Of a DNA stretch of 33,416 nt, positions 5,595 through 19,027 are shown in pieces. How positions within the stretch are numbered: the first letter of the stretch is position 1; each line of letters opens with the position of its first letter. The notes beneath the pieces were generated by a model that worked only from the letters and a program-made list of their open reading frames with translations, made no database searches and was not told the DNA's origin. The translations under genes were made by a program, and so were the position numbers. The DNA is from Gammaproteobacteria bacterium. GTDB lineage: Bacteria; Pseudomonadota; Gammaproteobacteria; SURF-13. Location: positions 1 to 33,416 of the forward strand of contig JAURVQ010000054.1 of the NCBI GenBank assembly GCA_030655395.1, written 5' to 3'.

Positions 5595-7469
5595 TTGCGC
5601 ACGCCGTTTTTTCACATGCACCCACAACAGCGAGATGGCGGCGGGGGTAACGCCGGAGATGCGGCCCGCCTGGCCGAGCGTGGCGGGCTTGTGCGCATTG
5701 AGCTTGAGCTGCACTTCTTTTGAGAGACCGCGCACGCTGCTGTAATCGAGGTCCAGCGGCAGCGTGGTTTCTTCACTCCTGCGGCTGCGCTCGATCTCGT
5801 CACTCTGGCGCGCGATGTAGCCGTGGTATTTGGCCTGTATCTCGACCTGCTCCGCAACCTTTTCATCCGCCACCGTTTCACCTGCGCCGGAGAGCGTCAT
5901 CAACGAGCGATAGGTCACGTCCGGACGGCGCAACAAATCCGCCAGCGTCGCCTCACGCGCCAGCGGCTGGCCCAGCACGCGCGCGGCATCCTCTTGCGGC
6001 AACTTCTCCGGGCGCATCCAGGTGGCGCTCAGGCGCTGCTGTTCTTTTTCAACCGCCGCGCGCTTGGTTTCAAGCACGCGCCAGCGCGCATCATCCACCG
6101 CGCCGAGTTCGCGGCCCTTGGGCGTGAGACGCAAATCCGCATTGTCTTCGCGCAACATCAACCGATACTCCGCGCGGCTGGTGAACATGCGATACGGCTC
6201 GGTCGTGCCGCGCGTGATCAAATCATCAATCAGCACGCCGACATACGCCTCGTCGCGGCGCGGACACCACGGCGCTTTACCCTGCACGCGCAACGCGGCG
6301 TTGATGCCCGCGATAATGCCTTGCGCCGCCGCCTCTTCGTAACCGGTGGTGCCGTTGATCTGGCCCGCGAAAAACAAGTTGTCAATAATTTTTGTTTCGA
6401 GCGAAGGCTGCAAATCGCGCGGATCGAAATAGTCGTACTCAATCGCGTAGCCGGGGCGCGTGAGGTGCGCGTTTTCAAAGCCCTTGATGGAGCGCACCAG
6501 CTCGATCTGCACATCGAATGGGAGACTGGTCGAGATGCCGTTAGGATAAACCTCGTGCGTGGTCAAGCCTTCCGGCTCGACGAAAATCTGGTGCGAAGTC
6601 TTGTCGGCAAAGCGCACGATCTTGTCTTCGATGGACGGACAATAGCGCGGCCCCACACCTTCGATCACGCCGGTGTACATCGGCGAGCGGTCGAGGCCGC
6701 CGCGGATGATGTCGTGCGTGCGCTCGTTGGTATGCGTGATGTGGCACGGCACCTGGCGCGGATGATCTTCGACGCGCCCCATAAATGAAAACACCGGCAG
6801 CGGTTCGTCGCCCGGCTGCGGCGCGAGCTTTGAATAATCTATCGTGCGCCCGTCGATGCGCGGCGGCGTGCCGGTTTTCAGCCGACCCACACGAAACGGC
6901 AAGTCACGCATGCGGCTCGCCAGCGCGTTCGCGGGCGGATCACCCGCGCGGCCGCCCTGATAATTGGACAGCCCGACATGAATCCGCCCGGCGAGAAAAG
7001 TGCCCACCGTCATCACCACGCACTGCGCACTGAAGCGCAAACCCATCTGCGTGACGACACCCATCACGCGCTCACCTTCGATAATTAAATCGTCCACCGC
7101 CTGCTGAAAAATCGAAAGATTAGTTTGTGTTTCCAGCGCATGGCGCACCGCCTGCCGGTACAGCACACGATCCGCCTGCGCGCGCGTGGCGCGCACCGCC
7201 GGGCCCTTGCTCGCATTCAAAATGCGAAACTGTATGCCGGCCTGATCCGCCGCACGCGCCATCAGGCCGCCGAGCGCATCGACCTCTTTCACCAGATGCC
7301 CCTTGCCGATGCCGCCGATGGAAGGATTGCAACTCATCTGGCCCAGCGTCTCGATGCTTTGCGTGAGCAGCAGCGTGCGCGCGCCCATGCGCGCAGACGC
7401 AAGCGCCGCCTCGGTGCCCGCATGCCCGCCGCCGACTACGATCACATCAAAATTTTCTTGATAAAACAT
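5586..7469 (-). CDS. mnmG: tRNA uridine 5-carboxymethylaminomethyl modification enzyme MnmG (GidA)
   Basis: [51 protein letters not shown]; start moved to 7469. Confidence 0.97.
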
Positions 7470-7683
7470 TAGGAAACCATGGCCTTGCTTTGTTTTTCTG
7501 CCCAACCGCCTGAAGTAATATTTTCAACAAAACACCGTGGCGCACTGCACTCTGGCGGATCAGCCTTGACTCGTGGCGCGAGGGGGTATACGTTTGCGAA
7601 ACGCGCGCTTGGAATTAAATATAAGACTTTGTCTTTTAAAATAAATTTAAAAGTGTGGCGCCCACTAATGTCGCAAAATAATA

Positions 7684-7703
7684 CCCCATTTAGGGGGTCT
7701 ACT
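7684..7703 (+). promoter_or_regulatory. Operator-like palindrome CCCCATTTAGGGGGTCTACT (related copy at 23361)
   Basis: Shares CCCyATTTAGGGkGTCTACT and an upstream ACTAATG with the region upstream of the YkvA gene. Confidence 0.45.
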
Positions 7704-7763
7704 TCCAGTTCATCGTAAGTGGCACGCATGAAACAGGAAGGTACTGCCCAATTGCGAGGCAGC

Positions 7764-7800
7764 GTTCGCGCTGGCGCATAACGCGAGCGTTAGTGCGAAC
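7764..7800. repeat. Hairpin GTTCGCGCT...AGTGCGAAC with nested AACGC-GA-GCGTT stem
   Basis: 9-bp outer stem (one G-T wobble) plus 5-bp inner stem; could be a decayed recombination site. Confidence 0.4.
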
Positions 7801-7911
7801 GAGCCGAATCTACGTTTCGGGCAGATAAGTTTACGTGAACTGATTTTTCAGGGGCTATGGTGACATGAAGATGCCAATTTTCATTACCAAGGCTGAATCT
7901 CTCACTCTCAC

Positions 7912-8006
7912 GCCGAACAATTCGTTCGAGCGAGCGCTCGCGGGAACCATCATTACATATCCCCGGCCTTCCTTGCCGCAAGCACCGCGCAATCCATCCG
8001 TTAGGC
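7912..8006 (+). repeat. attC-like integron recombination site 1
   Basis: GCCGAAC ... GTTAGGC boxes with partly complementary inner arms (GAGCGAGCGCTCGCGG / CCGCAAGCACCGCGC). Confidence 0.65.
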
Positions 8007-8024
8007 TATCCGTGGGATAGACAA

Positions 8025-8459
8025 GTGGCTAGAACCAACACGCTTGTGATTCGCGATCTTGCATCTCTAGATCTGTGGAGGCAGCAGTTGCGTAACATTA
8101 CGTGGTCGCGGAACCTTCCCGCCGCACAGTTTCAACTCCAGGAGTTCTCATACGAACAAAACCAACGTTTCTCGGCACTCGCCAGCAGTTTTCAGAAGGC
8201 GTGTGGTTGTGCGAGTAGCGGTTTCTTCATGAGTGTCACCGTCGTCGCGGTCATTGTTTCTTATTTCGTATCCGGAAATCATCTTTCCAACATCAATCTT
8301 CTGCATGTCCTGTCTCTTGTGGGTATCACCGTCCTTGCTGCACTTTCCGGCAAGCTCTTGGGCTTGTTCTGGGCACGGTGGCGATTGTTAAGACTTGCCA
8401 CGAGCGTACACAACATGATCGTCAGGGCTACACAACGAGCAGTTACTGAATCAATCTAA
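8025..8459 (+). CDS. Hypothetical two-TM membrane protein, cassette 1 gene 1
   Basis: GTG start 18 nt after attC; hydrophobic segments FFMSVTVVAVIVSYFV and NLLHVLSLVGITVLAALSGKLLGLF. Confidence 0.7.
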   Translation: MARTNTLVIRDLASLDLWRQQLRNITWSRNLPAAQFQLQEFSYEQNQRFSALASSFQKACGCASSGFFMSVTVVAVIVSYFVSGNHLSNINLLHVLSLVGITVLAALSGKLLGLFWARWRLLRLATSVHNMIVRATQRAVTESI

Positions 8460-8473
8460 GAGGAGGCTGAAAC

Positions 8474-9535
8474 ATGGGACGCGTCTGCAGAGAAGTCCAG
8501 GATCAGGTCGTAGGCAATTGCAACAATATTCAGTGTACTAGCTTCACCAATTGCAACAGCATTCAGTGCACTAGCTTCACCGGTTGCGCCTGGTGGAACG
8601 TCCCGTGCCACGTAGCTCGGGGCGTGTGCGTCGCGGCCGCAGTTATCGCACGCGCAGCCTGCTGGGTTGCTCGGGCCGCCTGCGACACGGCCGCAGCTCT
8701 CGCACGGGCAGCCTGCTGGGTTGCTCGGGCCGCCTGCGTCGTAGCCGCCGAGGTGGCTCGGACCGCTTGCATCGTGGCCGCAGCTCTCGCGCGCGCAGCC
8801 TGTGAGGTCGTGAACTTCGTGCTTGACGTGATCGGGTTCATCGTCGAAGTGATCCTCAGTATTCCGATCATCGGCGGCATCATCCGGACGATTCTGAACT
8901 GGGTAACTGAGATCATCTGGCGAATTGTTGGTATCTTCGACTTTCTAGCGTCGCTTGCCGGCATCCGCCCGCGCAAGAAGATGTATTTCGGCGTGATTGT
9001 CCCTCCGATTACCCCAATCGCTTCGGATGCCGATATCCAACGTCAAGTTGATGCGACCGTGGCGTTTTATGATCAGACGTGCAACATAAACATGATCTTC
9101 ACGGGCATCTGCCATACGGATGTCTCACCACCAGCTGCCGGACTTACCGTTGGATGCGACGCGGGTGGGTTCTTCAACGACTGGTTGCTCACAGGGTCCT
9201 ATTTCGAATTTGCGTCCGCGACATGCAAGTTCACGGATAGTTTTAGGCGGATCATCGGGTTGGGTGCCGAAATCATCGTGTTCATCGTTCAGAATGTAAC
9301 TCCAGCAAACACCAACGGCTGCAGTTTTGGATCGACTCACAACTGGGTCGTCATTGAGGCACTACCCACCGATCAGGCGTTCGTGGCAGCTCATGAGATA
9401 GGGCATGCATGCTGGTTGCTTCATGATGGCGACCCTGCCAACCTGATGAATTCGACCACACCGACGGCTAATCCTACACTCACGAACTTGCAGATTGCGG
9501 TTGTTCGTTGGAGCAAGCATTGTGTCTATATCTAA
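8474..9535 (+). CDS. Cys/Ala-repeat protein with hydrophobic segment and C-terminal metzincin-like zinc metalloprotease domain, cassette 1 gene 2
   Basis: SD AGGAGG upstream; NCNNIQCTSFT x2; ARAACWVARAAC repeats; FVLDVIGFIVEVILSIPIIGGIIRTIL; HEIGHACWLLHD followed by LMNSTTP. Confidence 0.8.
   Translation: MGRVCREVQDQVVGNCNNIQCTSFTNCNSIQCTSFTGCAWWNVPCHVARGVCVAAAVIARAACWVARAACDTAAALARAACWVARAACVVAAEVARTACIVAAALARAACEVVNFVLDVIGFIVEVILSIPIIGGIIRTILNWVTEIIWRIVGIFDFLASLAGIRPRKKMYFGVIVPPITPIASDADIQRQVDATVAFYDQTCNINMIFTGICHTDVSPPAAGLTVGCDAGGFFNDWLLTGSYFEFASATCKFTDSFRRIIGLGAEIIVFIVQNVTPANTNGCSFGSTHNWVVIEALPTDQAFVAAHEIGHACWLLHDGDPANLMNSTTPTANPTLTNLQIAVVRWSKHCVYI
8516..8581 (+). repeat. 33-bp coding tandem repeat, 2 copies (NCNNIQCTSFT)
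   Basis: aattgcaacaatattcagtgtactagcttcacc / aattgcaacagcattcagtgcactagcttcacc. Confidence 0.95.
8648..8755 (+). repeat. 54-bp coding tandem repeat, 2 copies plus a degenerate third (18 aa, ARAACWVARAAC...)
   Basis: 8648-8701 and 8702-8755 are nearly identical over the first ~37 bp; a degenerate unit follows to about 8806. Confidence 0.9.
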
Positions 9536-9556
9536 CGTGACAAGGAGATGAGTGAT

Positions 9557-9700
9557 ATGAAATCCGAAACGAACGACGCCGGTGATCGGCCCCAACCTAG
9601 CTGCAACGTCAACTCAACGTTTAACTTCACGGTGGGCGGGTTTGCAATTGCTGCCGCACTGCTGATCGGCTATCTAGCATATGTGTATTGGTGGAAGTGA
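9557..9700 (+). CDS. 47-aa single-TM small protein, cassette 1 gene 3
   Basis: AAGGAG SD; MKSETNDAGDRPQPSCNVNSTFNFTVGGFAIAAALLIGYLAYVYWWK; absent from ORF track (below size cutoff). Confidence 0.65.
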   Translation: MKSETNDAGDRPQPSCNVNSTFNFTVGGFAIAAALLIGYLAYVYWWK

Positions 9701-9707
9701 TGCGATA

Positions 9708-9732
9708 GGCGCGCGGCTGTCTTCCGCGCGCC
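9708..9732. terminator. GC-rich hairpin, possible terminator of the three-gene cassette
   Basis: Perfect 9-bp stem GGCGCGCGG-CTGTCTT-CCGCGCGCC, 7 nt after the 47-aa ORF stop; no strong T-tract. Confidence 0.5.
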
Positions 9733-9803
9733 CCTCTTGAAAGGAACGGATCAGTTCTCACTTTCAAAGAAGAAATGGGCTTGGCTCGATTAACAGCAGC
9801 GAT

Positions 9804-9872
9804 GCCTAACAATACCATCGAGCGGACGTGCCCCGGCAAGCCGAGTCCCGCCGCTCATGTCAAACGTTAGGC
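9804..9872 (+). repeat. attC site 2
   Basis: GCCTAAC...GTTAGGC perfect complementary boxes; inner CGAGCGG / CCGCTC. Confidence 0.88.
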
Positions 9873-9896
9873 CTGATCAAACAGCTTCCGGTGACA

Positions 9897-10604
9897 ATGG
9901 TTCTGAACCATCGATTTTGGGCAGATCAATTCAAAGGTGCTTTCGTCCCGGAAGTGCGGGCGCTGGTCGAAACGCTTGAAACCAGACTCCTACCGACCTT
10001 TGCAAACCTCAAATCCGAGGCGGACGCCAAGGAGAAAGAGGAACGGGAACGGTTGGGTTCCTTGCCCGGTGATGGTAGTGAAGACATGGCTGACTTAGCT
10101 GAAAGGGCCTTCGAGATCGGACTCGCGCACTACCAAACGATGATGAGCATTCGCCAGGGACTGCTTAACATGTTTGCGGTCGCCTTGTTTCATCTTTATG
10201 AGCAGCATGTGATGTTGTTTCATCGGCGAGAGGTGTTAGAGCCTAGGGAGGAGAACGACTCAAAGTTTCTTAAGCATTCCGTTTTCCGCGAGCGGCTGAG
10301 AAATCTCGGCATTGATGCAACCTCTTTTGCGTCCTGGCCGGTGCTTCAAGAACTTGGATTGGTGGCAAATACAGTCAAGCACGCGGAAGGCGACTCATCG
10401 GCCAAGCTTCATGCGCAACGCCCGGCCCTTTTTGAGCCGCCCGAACTCGCAGGATTCGGTTTCGCAGGTTTAAAGTCCGTCGCACGAGTCTTTACTCCAT
10501 TAACGGGCGATGACATTTATGTATCGCTGGAAGATTTGAAGCGCTATGCCGATGCGGCCGGGCAGTTCTGGGAAGAGCTATCAGATGCACTGGCTCAGGC
10601 CTAA
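9897..10604 (+). CDS. Hypothetical cassette protein
   Basis: Lies between two attC sites; MVLNHRFWADQFKGAFVPEVRALVETLETRL...; stop codon TAA falls in the R'' box of the next attC. Confidence 0.75.
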   Translation: MVLNHRFWADQFKGAFVPEVRALVETLETRLLPTFANLKSEADAKEKEERERLGSLPGDGSEDMADLAERAFEIGLAHYQTMMSIRQGLLNMFAVALFHLYEQHVMLFHRREVLEPREENDSKFLKHSVFRERLRNLGIDATSFASWPVLQELGLVANTVKHAEGDSSAKLHAQRPALFEPPELAGFGFAGLKSVARVFTPLTGDDIYVSLEDLKRYADAAGQFWEELSDALAQA

Positions 10605-10655
10605 CTTTAGTTCGAGCGGACGCGCTGAAGCGCGCCGCTCAATAAGACGTTGGGC
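10599..10655 (+). repeat. attC site 3
   Basis: GCCTAAC...TTCGAGCGGACGCGCTGAAGCGCGCCGCTC...GTTGGGC. Confidence 0.9.
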
Positions 10656-10700
10656 GGCAATCGAGCTGCACAACACTGTCACCCAAAAGGAGCATGATCT

Positions 10701-11180
10701 ATGTGTAGCCAAGCTCTCATTGGCCACTCACTACAGATGGCGTTGTTGTTCGTATTGGGCCTCGTCAGCTCGTTTGCTCTCGCACAACCGCCTGCTGAGG
10801 AGCCGGCACTGACGTGGACTCCCCGTGATGCGCAGCTTAAGTGGGGTCCCTGCCCGCCGTTCTTGCCCAAAGGATGCGCGATTGCCGTTCTACACGGCGA
10901 CCCTGCGAAAGACAATGTCGACGTGTTCTTCAAAGTGCCCGCCAAGTCGGCCATCCCGCTGCATTGGCACACTTCGGCGGAGCGCATGGTGCTGGTCGCA
11001 GGCGAGCTTCATGTCACCTATGACGGTCAGAAGAAGGCGGTACTCAAGCCAGGGACTTATGCGTACGGTCCCGCCAAACGACCGCACAAGGGCTTCTGTG
11101 CAAGCGCCGTCCCATGTGTCCTTTTCATTGCCTTTGAATCGCCGTTGGACGCAGTGCCGATCGAAGGCCCATCGAAATAG
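10701..11180 (+). CDS. Cupin-domain protein with signal peptide
   Basis: Signal MALLFVLGLVSSFALA; cupin motif IPLHWHTSAERMVLVAGELHVTYDG. Confidence 0.8.
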   Translation: MCSQALIGHSLQMALLFVLGLVSSFALAQPPAEEPALTWTPRDAQLKWGPCPPFLPKGCAIAVLHGDPAKDNVDVFFKVPAKSAIPLHWHTSAERMVLVAGELHVTYDGQKKAVLKPGTYAYGPAKRPHKGFCASAVPCVLFIAFESPLDAVPIEGPSK

Positions 11181-11190
11181 AACCATTGCC

Positions 11191-11284
11191 GCCCAATTTG
11201 AACGTTCAAGCGAACACTCGCGGGTGATTTCCTCTCTTCCCCGGCATCCCTTACCGCGAGCGTCGCTTAACTCCAACCTTCGGC
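11191..11284 (+). repeat. attC-like site 4 (degenerate terminal boxes)
   Basis: Inner arms TTCAAGCGAACACTCGCGG / CCGCGAGCGTCGCTTAA strongly complementary; outer boxes GCCCAAT and CTTCGGC diverged. Confidence 0.75.
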
Positions 11285-11323
11285 GTCACGGGACACTGAT
11301 TCCGACATCCCGCGGGAGGTACG

Positions 11324-12352
11324 ATGGCATTGACTGATGAGTACGATAAAACGGCAAGCGACATTCGGCGGCCCGGGTCTGAGCAGGTCGGCGTGCTGGA
11401 TGTCAGAGAGCTGATTCGGCACGCCACGCTCGCGTCCTCCAGTCACAACACCCAGCCCTGGAAATTCCGCATCCAGCAAGACTCGATCACCATCCTGCCC
11501 GACTTCTCACGACGTTGCCCGGCGGTCGATCCAGATGACAGTCACCTCTTCAAGAGCCTGGGCTGCGCAGCCGAGAATCTCGTTCATGCTGCTGCAGCAC
11601 AAGGTTTCTCGGCTGATGTGCGATTCGATCCCGGAGAAGACGGCGTTATCGTTCTTCTGAACCGTGACGCCTCGGCCCGCGCGACGAATCTTTATCAGGC
11701 AATAACCAAACGCCAATGTGTAAAGACTGCCTATGACGGCACCCCACTTGTGGCGCCGGAGCTTGAGATGTTGGAGAAAGCGGGTGAGAGGCAGAATGTC
11801 CGCACAATCATGTTGTTGTCGGAGGCGCAGAAGGACGCGGTTATTGACTACGTCACTCGGGGGGATTTCGCCCAACTAACTGATCGAGCTTTTCGAGACG
11901 AACTTGTTTCTTGGATTCGCTTCAATCCTGGTGAAGCAATACGCACGGGCGACGGCCTGTCCGGGCGCACCAGTGGCCAACCGGCATTGCCGACCTGGTT
12001 GGCGAAGTGGATCATCGGGCTGGTACTCACGCCGAAAGGGCAAGCCGAGACCGATGCCAAGAACATCAGAAGTTCCGCCGGCGTGGCGGTCTTCGTGTCA
12101 AACCACAACGATAAGGCTGCGTGGGTCGAAGCTGGACGCGCATATGAGCACTTTGCCCTGCAAGCGGCCTCATTTAATGTCCGCACTGCCTTCATTAACC
12201 AGCCGATCGAGGTGCGCCCGTTGCGCCCGCAGTTCGAATCATGGCTGGGGCTCGATGGAGAACACGTGCAGCTCATGGTACGTTTCGGCCACGGCCCTAT
12301 GGCGCCCTTCAGCCTACGTCGCCCAATTGACGACGTGATTATTGTGAACTAG
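11324..12352 (+). CDS. Acg-type FMN-binding nitroreductase-family protein
   Basis: ELIRHATLASSSHNTQPWKFRI (nitroreductase N-terminal motif); Acg-like length. Confidence 0.8.
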   Translation: MALTDEYDKTASDIRRPGSEQVGVLDVRELIRHATLASSSHNTQPWKFRIQQDSITILPDFSRRCPAVDPDDSHLFKSLGCAAENLVHAAAAQGFSADVRFDPGEDGVIVLLNRDASARATNLYQAITKRQCVKTAYDGTPLVAPELEMLEKAGERQNVRTIMLLSEAQKDAVIDYVTRGDFAQLTDRAFRDELVSWIRFNPGEAIRTGDGLSGRTSGQPALPTWLAKWIIGLVLTPKGQAETDAKNIRSSAGVAVFVSNHNDKAAWVEAGRAYEHFALQAASFNVRTAFINQPIEVRPLRPQFESWLGLDGEHVQLMVRFGHGPMAPFSLRRPIDDVIIVN

Positions 12353-12388
12353 TCAGCAGGGCTACCAGACGACGCCTATGCGAGTGAC

Positions 12389-12452
12389 GCCGAACCCTGC
12401 ATTCGAGCGGGACGCGCCAAAAGCGGCGCGCCCCTCAATTTGAATGTTGGGC
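12389..12452 (+). repeat. attC site 5
   Basis: GCCGAAC...TTCGAGCGGGACGCGCCAAAAGCGGCGCGCCCCTCAA...GTTGGGC. Confidence 0.88.
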
Positions 12453-12738: not shown

Positions 12739-12798
12739 GCCCAACCCATCATTCAGGCGGGGCGCGCTTCAGGGCGCTCTTTAATTCAGATGTTGGGC
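12739..12798 (+). repeat. attC site 6
   Basis: GCCCAAC...GGGGCGCGCTTCAGGGCGCTCTTTAATTCAGAT...GTTGGGC. Confidence 0.9.
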
Positions 12799-16798: not shown

Positions 16799-16857
16799 GC
16801 CTAACCAGGTTGAGAGGGGCGCAGCGGTAGTGGCGCCCCTCACTTTTATCGTTAAGC
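16799..16857 (+). repeat. attC site 8 (last of array)
   Basis: GCCTAAC...TGAGAGGGGCGC...GCGCCCCTCA...GTTAAGC. Confidence 0.75.
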
Positions 16858-18028: not shown

Positions 18029-19027
18029 ATGGCAAGACGTCTTGTAGTGTTATACGACGGCACCTGGAACCGCAAGGGCGACCGTACCAATGTGTCGCGC
18101 ATGAAGCAGGGCCTAGTCTCCACCGGCAAGGATGATCCGGAGCAGCCCTGTTTTTATGATGCGGGCGTGGGCACGCACTGGTATGACAGGCTCACCGGCG
18201 GCGCATTCGGTCGCGGCCTTTCCATTAACATCCGGCAGGGTTATCAATGGTTGTCGAGCAAGCACGTTGCGGGCGACGAGATATTTGTGATGGGCTTCAG
18301 CCGCGGGGCCTACACGGCAAGAAGCCTGGTGGGCCTGATCAGAAAATGCGGACTCTTGACTGCGCCCACGGAGGCGCTCGTCCATCAGGCCTATACCATT
18401 TACCGCGACAAGCGATTACATCCCGACAGCGCCGAGGCTACGGCCTTTCGCGCCAGTTTTTCACGTGAGACGCGCGTGCGATTTATCGGGGTGTGGGACA
18501 CCGTCGGCGCGCTTGGCATTCCGCTGTCGCATGTGCCCTTCAGCCGGGATTATTATCGCTGGCACGACACCGAGTTGAGCAAAATCGTTGACTATGCCTA
18601 TCATGCCATTGCGACGGATGAGCACCGCGAGGACTACAAGGCCACGGTCTGGACCAAAATCAAACCGGAAAACATCGACGTGGAGCAACGCTGGTTTGTC
18701 GGCGCGCACGCCAATGTCGGCGGCGGTTATGACCGCGATGTGCTGCCCAACATTCCCTTGCAATGGTTGCAGGACAAGGCGGCGGCGTGCGGCCTGAAGT
18801 TTTCCTCCGCTGCCGCCGTGGGCGCGGAAGATCACCTGGCCCCGGTCAGAAATTCTTATGGAGACTTCATGTTCGGCATGTACCAAATGCTTAAACAGGA
18901 ATATCAGCGCCCGTTTGGCTCGGGCGTGCATGAAACCGTCGATGAATCGGTTTGGCGCCGCTGGCAGGCGCTCCCCGCCTATCGTCCCGCGTCATTGCGT
19001 AATCATCCAGACAAACCGGGCGCGTGA
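18029..19027 (+). CDS. DUF2235 alpha/beta-hydrolase-like protein
   Basis: RLVVLYDGTWNRKGDRTNVSRM; GFSRGAYTARSLVGLI nucleophile elbow; FIGVWDTVGALG; SD GGAGG. Confidence 0.92.
   Translation: MARRLVVLYDGTWNRKGDRTNVSRMKQGLVSTGKDDPEQPCFYDAGVGTHWYDRLTGGAFGRGLSINIRQGYQWLSSKHVAGDEIFVMGFSRGAYTARSLVGLIRKCGLLTAPTEALVHQAYTIYRDKRLHPDSAEATAFRASFSRETRVRFIGVWDTVGALGIPLSHVPFSRDYYRWHDTELSKIVDYAYHAIATDEHREDYKATVWTKIKPENIDVEQRWFVGAHANVGGGYDRDVLPNIPLQWLQDKAAACGLKFSSAAAVGAEDHLAPVRNSYGDFMFGMYQMLKQEYQRPFGSGVHETVDESVWRRWQALPAYRPASLRNHPDKPGA

What the first reader, a model, noticed from the sequence alone, without database searches (positions are those of the whole stretch)
8006..9804. Three-gene cassette with a Cys-repeat metzincin-like protein: candidate undescribed system
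Integron cassettes usually carry one gene. Here a single attC-to-attC unit holds a two-TM protein (8025-8459), a Cys/Ala-repeat plus hydrophobic-segment plus metzincin-like protein (8474-9535) and a 47-aa TM protein (9557-9700), each of the last two with its own SD, then a hairpin (9708-9732). The arrangement suggests a co-inherited module: a membrane-active protease with one or two membrane partners (immunity, export or anchoring). I recognise no named system with this architecture.
Basis: partly seen in the sequence, partly recalled or inferred. Interest (0 to 1): 0.85.

Follow-up and report, generated by a model that had tools for sequence, protein, structure and literature searches.

The report
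Swappable membrane hydrolase with dedicated partner
A mobile integron cassette carries a zinc protease fused to an unusual cysteine/tryptophan-rich membrane segment, together with a two-span membrane protein that stands beside it in all 16 loci compared, in bacteria of several phyla; the same membrane segment and partner also occur with a different enzyme (a phospholipase-type phosphoesterase), so this looks like an undescribed modular system whose job is still unknown.

Summary
The three genes are real, intact, each with its own ribosome-binding site, and under purifying selection. They are not a chance collection. In all 16 loci found with the protease (window, 12 GTDB loci, a Bacillus cereus plasmid, two longer Bacteroidota forms), the two-TM gene A lies directly beside it. 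The small one-TM gene C follows in 11 of 16. So A+B is the core and C an accessory. B is a metzincin-type zinc protease (best profile match MMP-8/M10, sub-threshold) behind a hydrophobic Cys/Trp-rich N-domain; in the window's clade the N-domain front has become Cys/Ala repeats. The decisive addition is that an A homologue in a Luteimonas MAG sits beside the same type of N-domain fused to a PF04185 phosphoesterase. The enzyme is swappable; N-domain and A are the constant parts. A, C and the N-domain match no Pfam, NCBIfam, PHROGs or PADLOC family. DNA homology to a KSB1 MAG (84%) spans exactly the cassette cargo, so it moved as a unit. Best reading: a membrane-tethered hydrolase effector held or controlled by a dedicated membrane partner, probably for biological conflict. 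The role is inferred; both fold predictions were too weak to use.

The parts
8000..8006 (+). 5' recombination core GTTAGGC at the cassette edge (candidate upstream attC 7912-8006 not convincing by folding)
8025..8459 (+). gene A: 144-aa membrane protein; ~55-aa soluble N-terminal part, invariant CGC motif before TM1, TM hairpin, conserved GK...AR basic segment after TM2 (both ends predicted cytoplasmic); adjacent to B in 16/16 loci
8460..8466 (+). Shine-Dalgarno GAGGAGG of gene B
8474..9535 (+). gene B: 353-aa protein, Cys-rich hydrophobic N-domain plus metzincin-like zinc protease
8474..8962 (+). B N-domain (residues 1-163); residues ~15-113 are Cys repeats: 11-aa CNxIxCTSFTN units and 18-aa Cys/Ala/Arg units, expanded only in the window/L002/L003 clade
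8966..9532 (+). B metzincin-like domain (residues 165-353), seven invariant Cys in the 13 close homologues
9392..9424 (+). zinc site HEIGHACWLLH (HExxHxxWxxH; the usual Gly is Trp)
9446..9448 (+). Met-turn methionine (NLMN), invariant in the family
9542..9547 (+). Shine-Dalgarno AAGGAG of gene C
9557..9700 (+). gene C: 47-aa tail-anchored protein, Cys16 just before one TM; accessory
9708..9732 (+). G+C-rich hairpin after C, no T-run
9804..9872 (+). 3' attC of the cassette

Best explanation
The cassette is one member of an undescribed modular system. It has a constant two-TM membrane protein (A) and a constant Cys/Trp-rich hydrophobic N-domain fused to an interchangeable hydrolase (metzincin here, a long metzincin variant in some Bacteroidota, a PF04185 phosphoesterase in Luteimonas), with an optional small Cys-TM protein (C). 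Shown: genes, linkage, purifying selection, domain shuffling, transfer as a unit. Inferred: the N-domain puts the enzyme on or into the membrane; A binds the N-domain through its TM hairpin and CGC region and holds, places or restrains it; C modifies that complex. The hydrolase then attacks proteins (or lipids, in the phosphoesterase form) at the membrane. The rare, patchy, mobile distribution suggests a role in conflict with other cells or with mobile elements.
For: A lies beside B in 16/16 loci found by searching with B alone. A-family genes are rare: 3 of 251 and 4 of 199 genomes in two orders. A and B distances correlate (Mantel r 0.61, 0 of 10000 permutations as high). Ka/Ks window versus L002: A 0.40, B 0.24, C 0.19. 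A second A gene in G106 stands 10 nt before a 704-aa protein with the N-domain and PF04185 (E 9e-69). The N-domain homology L051-L019 scores 55 bits against at most 8.9 in 1000 shuffles, and L019 to the main family 22.7 against 9.2. The closest relatives of that phosphoesterase start at the domain, without N-domain or leader, so the N-domain is an added module. L040 and L041 share the N-domain (E 4e-35 to L004) and A but have a different long C-terminal part ending in a canonical HExxHxxGxxH plus Met. The N-domain to enzyme junction is basic in all (+2 to +8) and the segment after TM2 of A is basic in all. 84% DNA homology to a KSB1 MAG covers only the cargo.
Against: No function was tested. 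Both AlphaFold models are poor (pLDDT 61 and 42), so neither the metzincin fold nor an A-N-domain contact is shown. The swap to phosphoesterase rests on one locus. Neighbouring genes give no clear role: restriction-modification genes near 2 of 13 loci examined, no secretion apparatus. The phylum labels of L002-L010 rest on MAG bins; only Parapedobacter, Flavobacterium and the B. cereus plasmid are isolates.
Confidence: 0.45

Rival explanations
1. A cell-surface hydrolase anchoring system: A (with C) inserts the N-domain into the producer's own membrane so that ordinary digestive or processing enzymes (protease, phospholipase) are displayed on the cell surface, comparable in purpose to sortase, exosortase or rhombosortase systems.
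For: The enzymes are of classes usually exported; the metzincin domain has seven invariant Cys, and C203/C213 are lost together in the B. cereus protein, as a disulfide pair would be. A is the same family whatever the enzyme.
Against: No signal peptide on B; the junction just before the enzyme is strongly basic, which by the positive-inside rule puts the enzyme on the cytoplasmic side. The nearest phosphoesterases have no leader. Only one B per genome, unlike sorting systems with many clients.
Confidence: 0.22
2. A toxin-immunity or abortive-infection (anti-phage) module: B damages the membrane of its own or a neighbouring cell when released or triggered; A is the antidote or sensor.
For: Rare, patchy, mobile, carried in an integron array; A evolves faster than B at the protein level in the L004/L006, L011/L012 and window/L003 pairs; restriction-modification genes near L004 and L040.
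Against: A is constant across different enzymes, so it cannot be enzyme-specific immunity. No PADLOC model matches A or C, and B only trivially (capP E 0.03, HExxH region). No delivery domain or secretion genes nearby. A also occurs without any B nearby (L049, L050).
Confidence: 0.22
3. A peptide-processing operon: the metzincin cuts the small proteins (A at the CGC region or C near its Cys) to release a signal or active peptide, as zincin peptidase plus small-protein pairs do.
For: Tight linkage of a metallopeptidase with small proteins bearing an invariant Cys next to a TM; a zincin plus FxSxx-COOH peptide pair is a published precedent (PMC7159879).
Against: The partner A is kept when the enzyme is a phosphoesterase, which cannot process it; C is missing from five of the 16 loci.
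Confidence: 0.07

Closest known systems
Matrixins / M10 metzincins (PF00413, MMP-8)
   Same: HExxHxxxxxH zinc site with correct spacing and Met-turn; colinear helix A and following strand in the profile alignment
   Different: sub-threshold in Pfam (20.4 bits against 24); the zinc-motif Gly is Trp or Leu in the short forms; no propeptide or secretion signal; Cys/Trp-rich membrane N-domain instead
PF04185 phosphoesterases (phospholipase C / acid phosphatase)
   Same: C-terminal enzyme of the L051 protein (E 9e-69)
   Different: its closest plasmid relatives have no N-domain, and no A-like gene was noted beside them
Polymorphic toxin systems (CDI, Rhs and similar)
   Same: logic of a constant N-terminal part with interchangeable enzymes, mobile and patchy
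   Different: no homology to known delivery domains, no secretion genes, partner is constant and not specific to the enzyme
Zincin peptidase / FxSxx-COOH peptide pairs (PMC7159879)
   Same: metallopeptidase gene with small divergent neighbour gene
   Different: B is predicted to be membrane-anchored, partner A is a two-TM protein kept with another enzyme
Integron gene cassettes in arrays without integrase (CALIN)
   Same: 3' attC, array of further cassettes, no promoter-like site ahead of the cargo
   Different: three genes in one cassette; homologous loci elsewhere are not in integrons (no attC found in L002-L013)

Membership tests
Metzincin metallopeptidases | HExxHxxGxxH/D zinc motif | tested here: inconclusive
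   window HEIGHACWLLH: right ligands and spacing, Gly replaced by Trp; canonical form present in L040/L041 (HEIGHYYGLNH, HELGHYFGLCH)
Metzincin metallopeptidases | Met-turn after the zinc motif | tested here: met
   M325 invariant in 13 of 13 aligned proteins and aligned in B. cereus
Metzincin metallopeptidases | metzincin fold | tested here: inconclusive
   models too weak; only a strand-helix-strand start and a colinear profile match to MMP-8, E 0.003
Pfam Peptidase_M10 | score above gathering cut-off | tested here: not met
   20.4 against 24 bits
Polymorphic toxin systems | constant N-terminal region with different C-terminal enzymes | tested here: met
   N-domain with short metzincin, long metzincin and phosphoesterase
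Polymorphic toxin systems | immunity protein specific to the C-terminal toxin | tested here: not met
   A is one family whichever enzyme follows
Polymorphic toxin systems | recognisable secretion or delivery domain or apparatus | tested here: not met
   no Pfam/NCBIfam domain in the N-domain, none among the neighbour families shown
Polymorphic toxin systems | toxicity relieved by the partner | not testable with these tools
   needs expression
Known anti-phage defence systems (PADLOC) | match of A, B or C to a PADLOC model | tested here: not met
   only capP at E 0.03 over the HExxH region
Integron cassette | attC at the 3' end | tested here: met
   9804-9872, z -4.9
Integron cassette | attC or attI at the 5' edge | tested here: inconclusive
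   core GTTAGGC 8000-8006 present, folding of 7912-8006 not significant
Complete integron | integrase gene intI | tested here: not met
   only XerC/D-like recombinases below cut-off in the assembly

The most novel reading that the evidence does not exclude
A new class of membrane effector system, spread across many bacterial phyla: a two-TM adaptor (A) acts as a universal dock or switch for a Cys/Trp-rich N-domain that can carry different hydrolases (protease, phospholipase-type enzyme and probably others), used in conflict between cells or against phages and traded as compact units, here inside an integron cassette.
Probability: 0.35. Interest if true: 0.87.

Novelty: new variant of a known kind. 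Interest (0 to 1): 0.7.

Why it matters
It exposes three protein families without an entry in the databases searched (A, C and the N-domain) that travel together across phyla and carry interchangeable hydrolases. If the A/N-domain pair is a general docking or switching device for membrane-acting enzymes, it gives a handle for finding more effectors by genome search and adds a function to the large unexplained cargo of integrons.

Tried and rejected
AlphaFold of full-length B (pLDDT 61) and of the metzincin domain (pLDDT 42) were too weak for fold searches, which were therefore not run. Viral-contig searches failed every time (the search machine gave no answer). No plasmid DNA match to the cassette and no phage match to B. 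The idea that A is enzyme-specific immunity was dropped after the phosphoesterase locus. The idea that all three genes are obligate was dropped (C absent from L010, L013, L019, L040, L041). C-like similarity in L050 is only suggestive (9.0 bits, best of 500 shuffles 6.7). C of L007-L009 and L012 does not beat shuffles (L011 is marginal), so those are positional counterparts only. No attC sites at L002-L013. No literature describing the module. A search of 120 Actinomycetota genomes with the L051 N-domain found nothing, without a positive control.

Full report
Observation. The window is one contig of a 1.72-Mb, 98%-complete draft genome. Genes mnmG, rsmG, parA/parB, mnmE, yidC and dnaA are recognisable around it by my reading of the ORF list, that is, the replication-origin region. 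Between mnmG and mnmE lies an array with attC sites at 9804-9872, 10599-10655, 12389-12452, 12739-12798 and possibly 16799-16857. No integron integrase was found: two tyrosine recombinases match far below the cut-off, one of which reads as XerD while the other has XerC/D size. The 3' attC is solid; the 5' edge has only the core GTTAGGC at 8000-8006.

Relatives of B. A genome scan with B gave 12 loci, L002-L013, from a KSB1 MAG, Gammaproteobacteria, Lysobacterales, Luteimonas, Prolixibacteraceae, Odoribacter, Niastella, Parapedobacter (two isolates), a Flavobacterium isolate, Pyrinomonadaceae and Thermoleophilia. A B. cereus plasmid adds one and profile searches two longer Bacteroidota forms. 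B is rare: the window's own gene is the only hit among 99 relatives, and phylum samples gave about 1% of genomes or less.

Linkage. In every one of the 16 loci (window included) a two-TM protein with an invariant CGC motif lies next to B: upstream in the window, L002-L009 and B. cereus, downstream in L010-L013, L040 and L041, overlapping or within about 160 bases. An all-against-all comparison of neighbours found no other recurrent family except between L004 and L006, which are near-identical over the whole stretch. A and B distances correlate (Mantel r 0.61, 0 of 10000 permutations). A small one-TM protein with a Cys before the TM starts about 8-25 nt after B in 11 loci (window, L002-L009, L011, L012), but sequence homology of C is shown only for the window and L002-L006.

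Transfer and selection. The window and the KSB1 MAG share 84% DNA identity over 8013-9715 and nothing outside, so the unit moved as a whole. Ka/Ks for this pair is 0.40 (A), 0.24 (B) and 0.19 (C). The B tree mixes phyla, with the caveats that support is moderate and that several records are MAGs.

B in detail. The C-terminal 190 residues carry HEIGHACWLLH and NLMN. Pfam M10 is the best family for most members but below its cut-off everywhere. A family profile hits MMP-8 first, with helix A and the next strand colinear. The Gly of the metzincin motif is Trp or Leu in the short forms but present in the long forms L040/L041. Two AlphaFold runs failed to give a usable model, so membership of the metzincins is likely but not proven. 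The N-domain in most members is an amphipathic E/W/C-rich stretch (EWIEEQIEQPIEEWENRQERRCREQDCNWWCLCCNKWFCW) followed by a long hydrophobic region. In the window, L002 and L003 its front half is replaced by 11-aa and 18-aa Cys repeats whose number differs between them. An 18-residue period equals five helical turns and would put Cys and Arg on one face of a long helix (inference).

Modularity. Searching with the A family in Xanthomonadales relatives found a second A gene in the Luteimonas MAG that also holds L009. It ends 10 nt before a 704-aa protein whose first ~170 residues are a Trp/Cys-rich N-domain and whose remainder is a PF04185 phosphoesterase. The N-domain similarity to the B. cereus metzincin protein is 55 bits against at most 8.9 in 1000 composition-preserving shuffles, and the B. 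cereus N-domain in turn matches the main family (22.7 against 9.2). Plasmid relatives of the phosphoesterase begin at the domain itself with neither N-domain nor leader. L040 and L041 have the same N-domain and A but a different long C-terminal part with its own zinc motif. So the N-domain and A are the constant elements, and the enzyme is interchangeable. A also occurs without an N-domain protein beside it in L049 and L050.

Mechanism. What is shown is composition, linkage, selection, transfer and domain exchange. What is inferred: the hydrophobic N-domain places the hydrolase at the membrane; A, whose TM hairpin has a basic segment after TM2 (both ends predicted cytoplasmic), is the dedicated partner of the N-domain because it is kept when the enzyme changes; the basic junction before the enzyme (+2 to +8 in the members measured) points to a cytoplasmic-side enzyme. 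Whether the result is an effector against other cells, a suicide or anti-phage device, or a surface-display system cannot be decided from sequence. Patchiness, mobility and the membrane-attacking enzyme classes make conflict my first choice; the neighbourhoods are not informative enough to press it (restriction-modification genes near L004 and L040, no secretion machinery seen among the families listed).

Comparison with the known. A, C and the N-domain have no match in Pfam, NCBIfam, PHROGs or PADLOC, and text searches found no description. The logic resembles polymorphic toxins (constant front, exchangeable enzyme), but two defining features were tested and not met (enzyme-specific immunity, delivery domain), so it is not filed there. 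I rate it a new variant of a known kind (modular effector with partner) and leave the stronger reading, a new class, at 0.35.

Noticed in passing
L051:5867-8450: A gene directly before a Cys/Trp-rich N-domain fused to a PF04185 phosphoesterase in a Luteimonas MAG; the key clue that the enzyme is exchangeable.
   Followed up: yes
L049:5757-6185 and L050:5937-6338: A homologues with no N-domain protein beside them, in similar chromosomal surroundings (PP2C phosphatase, FHA protein, HMG-CoA synthase); L050 is followed by a 62-aa one-TM ORF that may resemble C.
   Followed up: partly
L008:3893-4330: A 145-aa Cys/Trp-rich ORF directly before A in the Thermoleophilia MAG, possibly another membrane component.
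   Followed up: no
L004:3555-4478 and 6230-8089 (also L006): The module is flanked by a papain-like C1 peptidase and a 619-aa Cys-containing transthyretin-like protein in two near-identical Bacteroidota MAG contigs.
   Followed up: partly
L011:2620-4815: A phospholipase C-type protein (apparently the PF04185/PF05506 hit) lies divergently next to B in Parapedobacter pyrenivorans; curious given the PF04185 enzyme of L051.
   Followed up: no
window 10656-12452: The next-but-one cassette also holds two genes (cupin and nitroreductase), so multi-gene cassettes are not unique to this unit.
   Followed up: partly
window 9828-10604: 258-aa cassette ORF with no Pfam family; its GTG start lies inside the attC, so the true start is probably downstream of the attC.
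   Followed up: no
window 18029-19027: Tle1-like (PF09994) phospholipase-domain protein followed by genes that look like MoxR, DUF58 and transglutaminase.
   Followed up: no
L019:1873-2844: B. cereus plasmid form: the third zinc His is shifted by one (HEVGHACGLLLH), and three otherwise invariant Cys of the enzyme domain (203, 213 and 350 in window numbering) are absent.
   Followed up: partly
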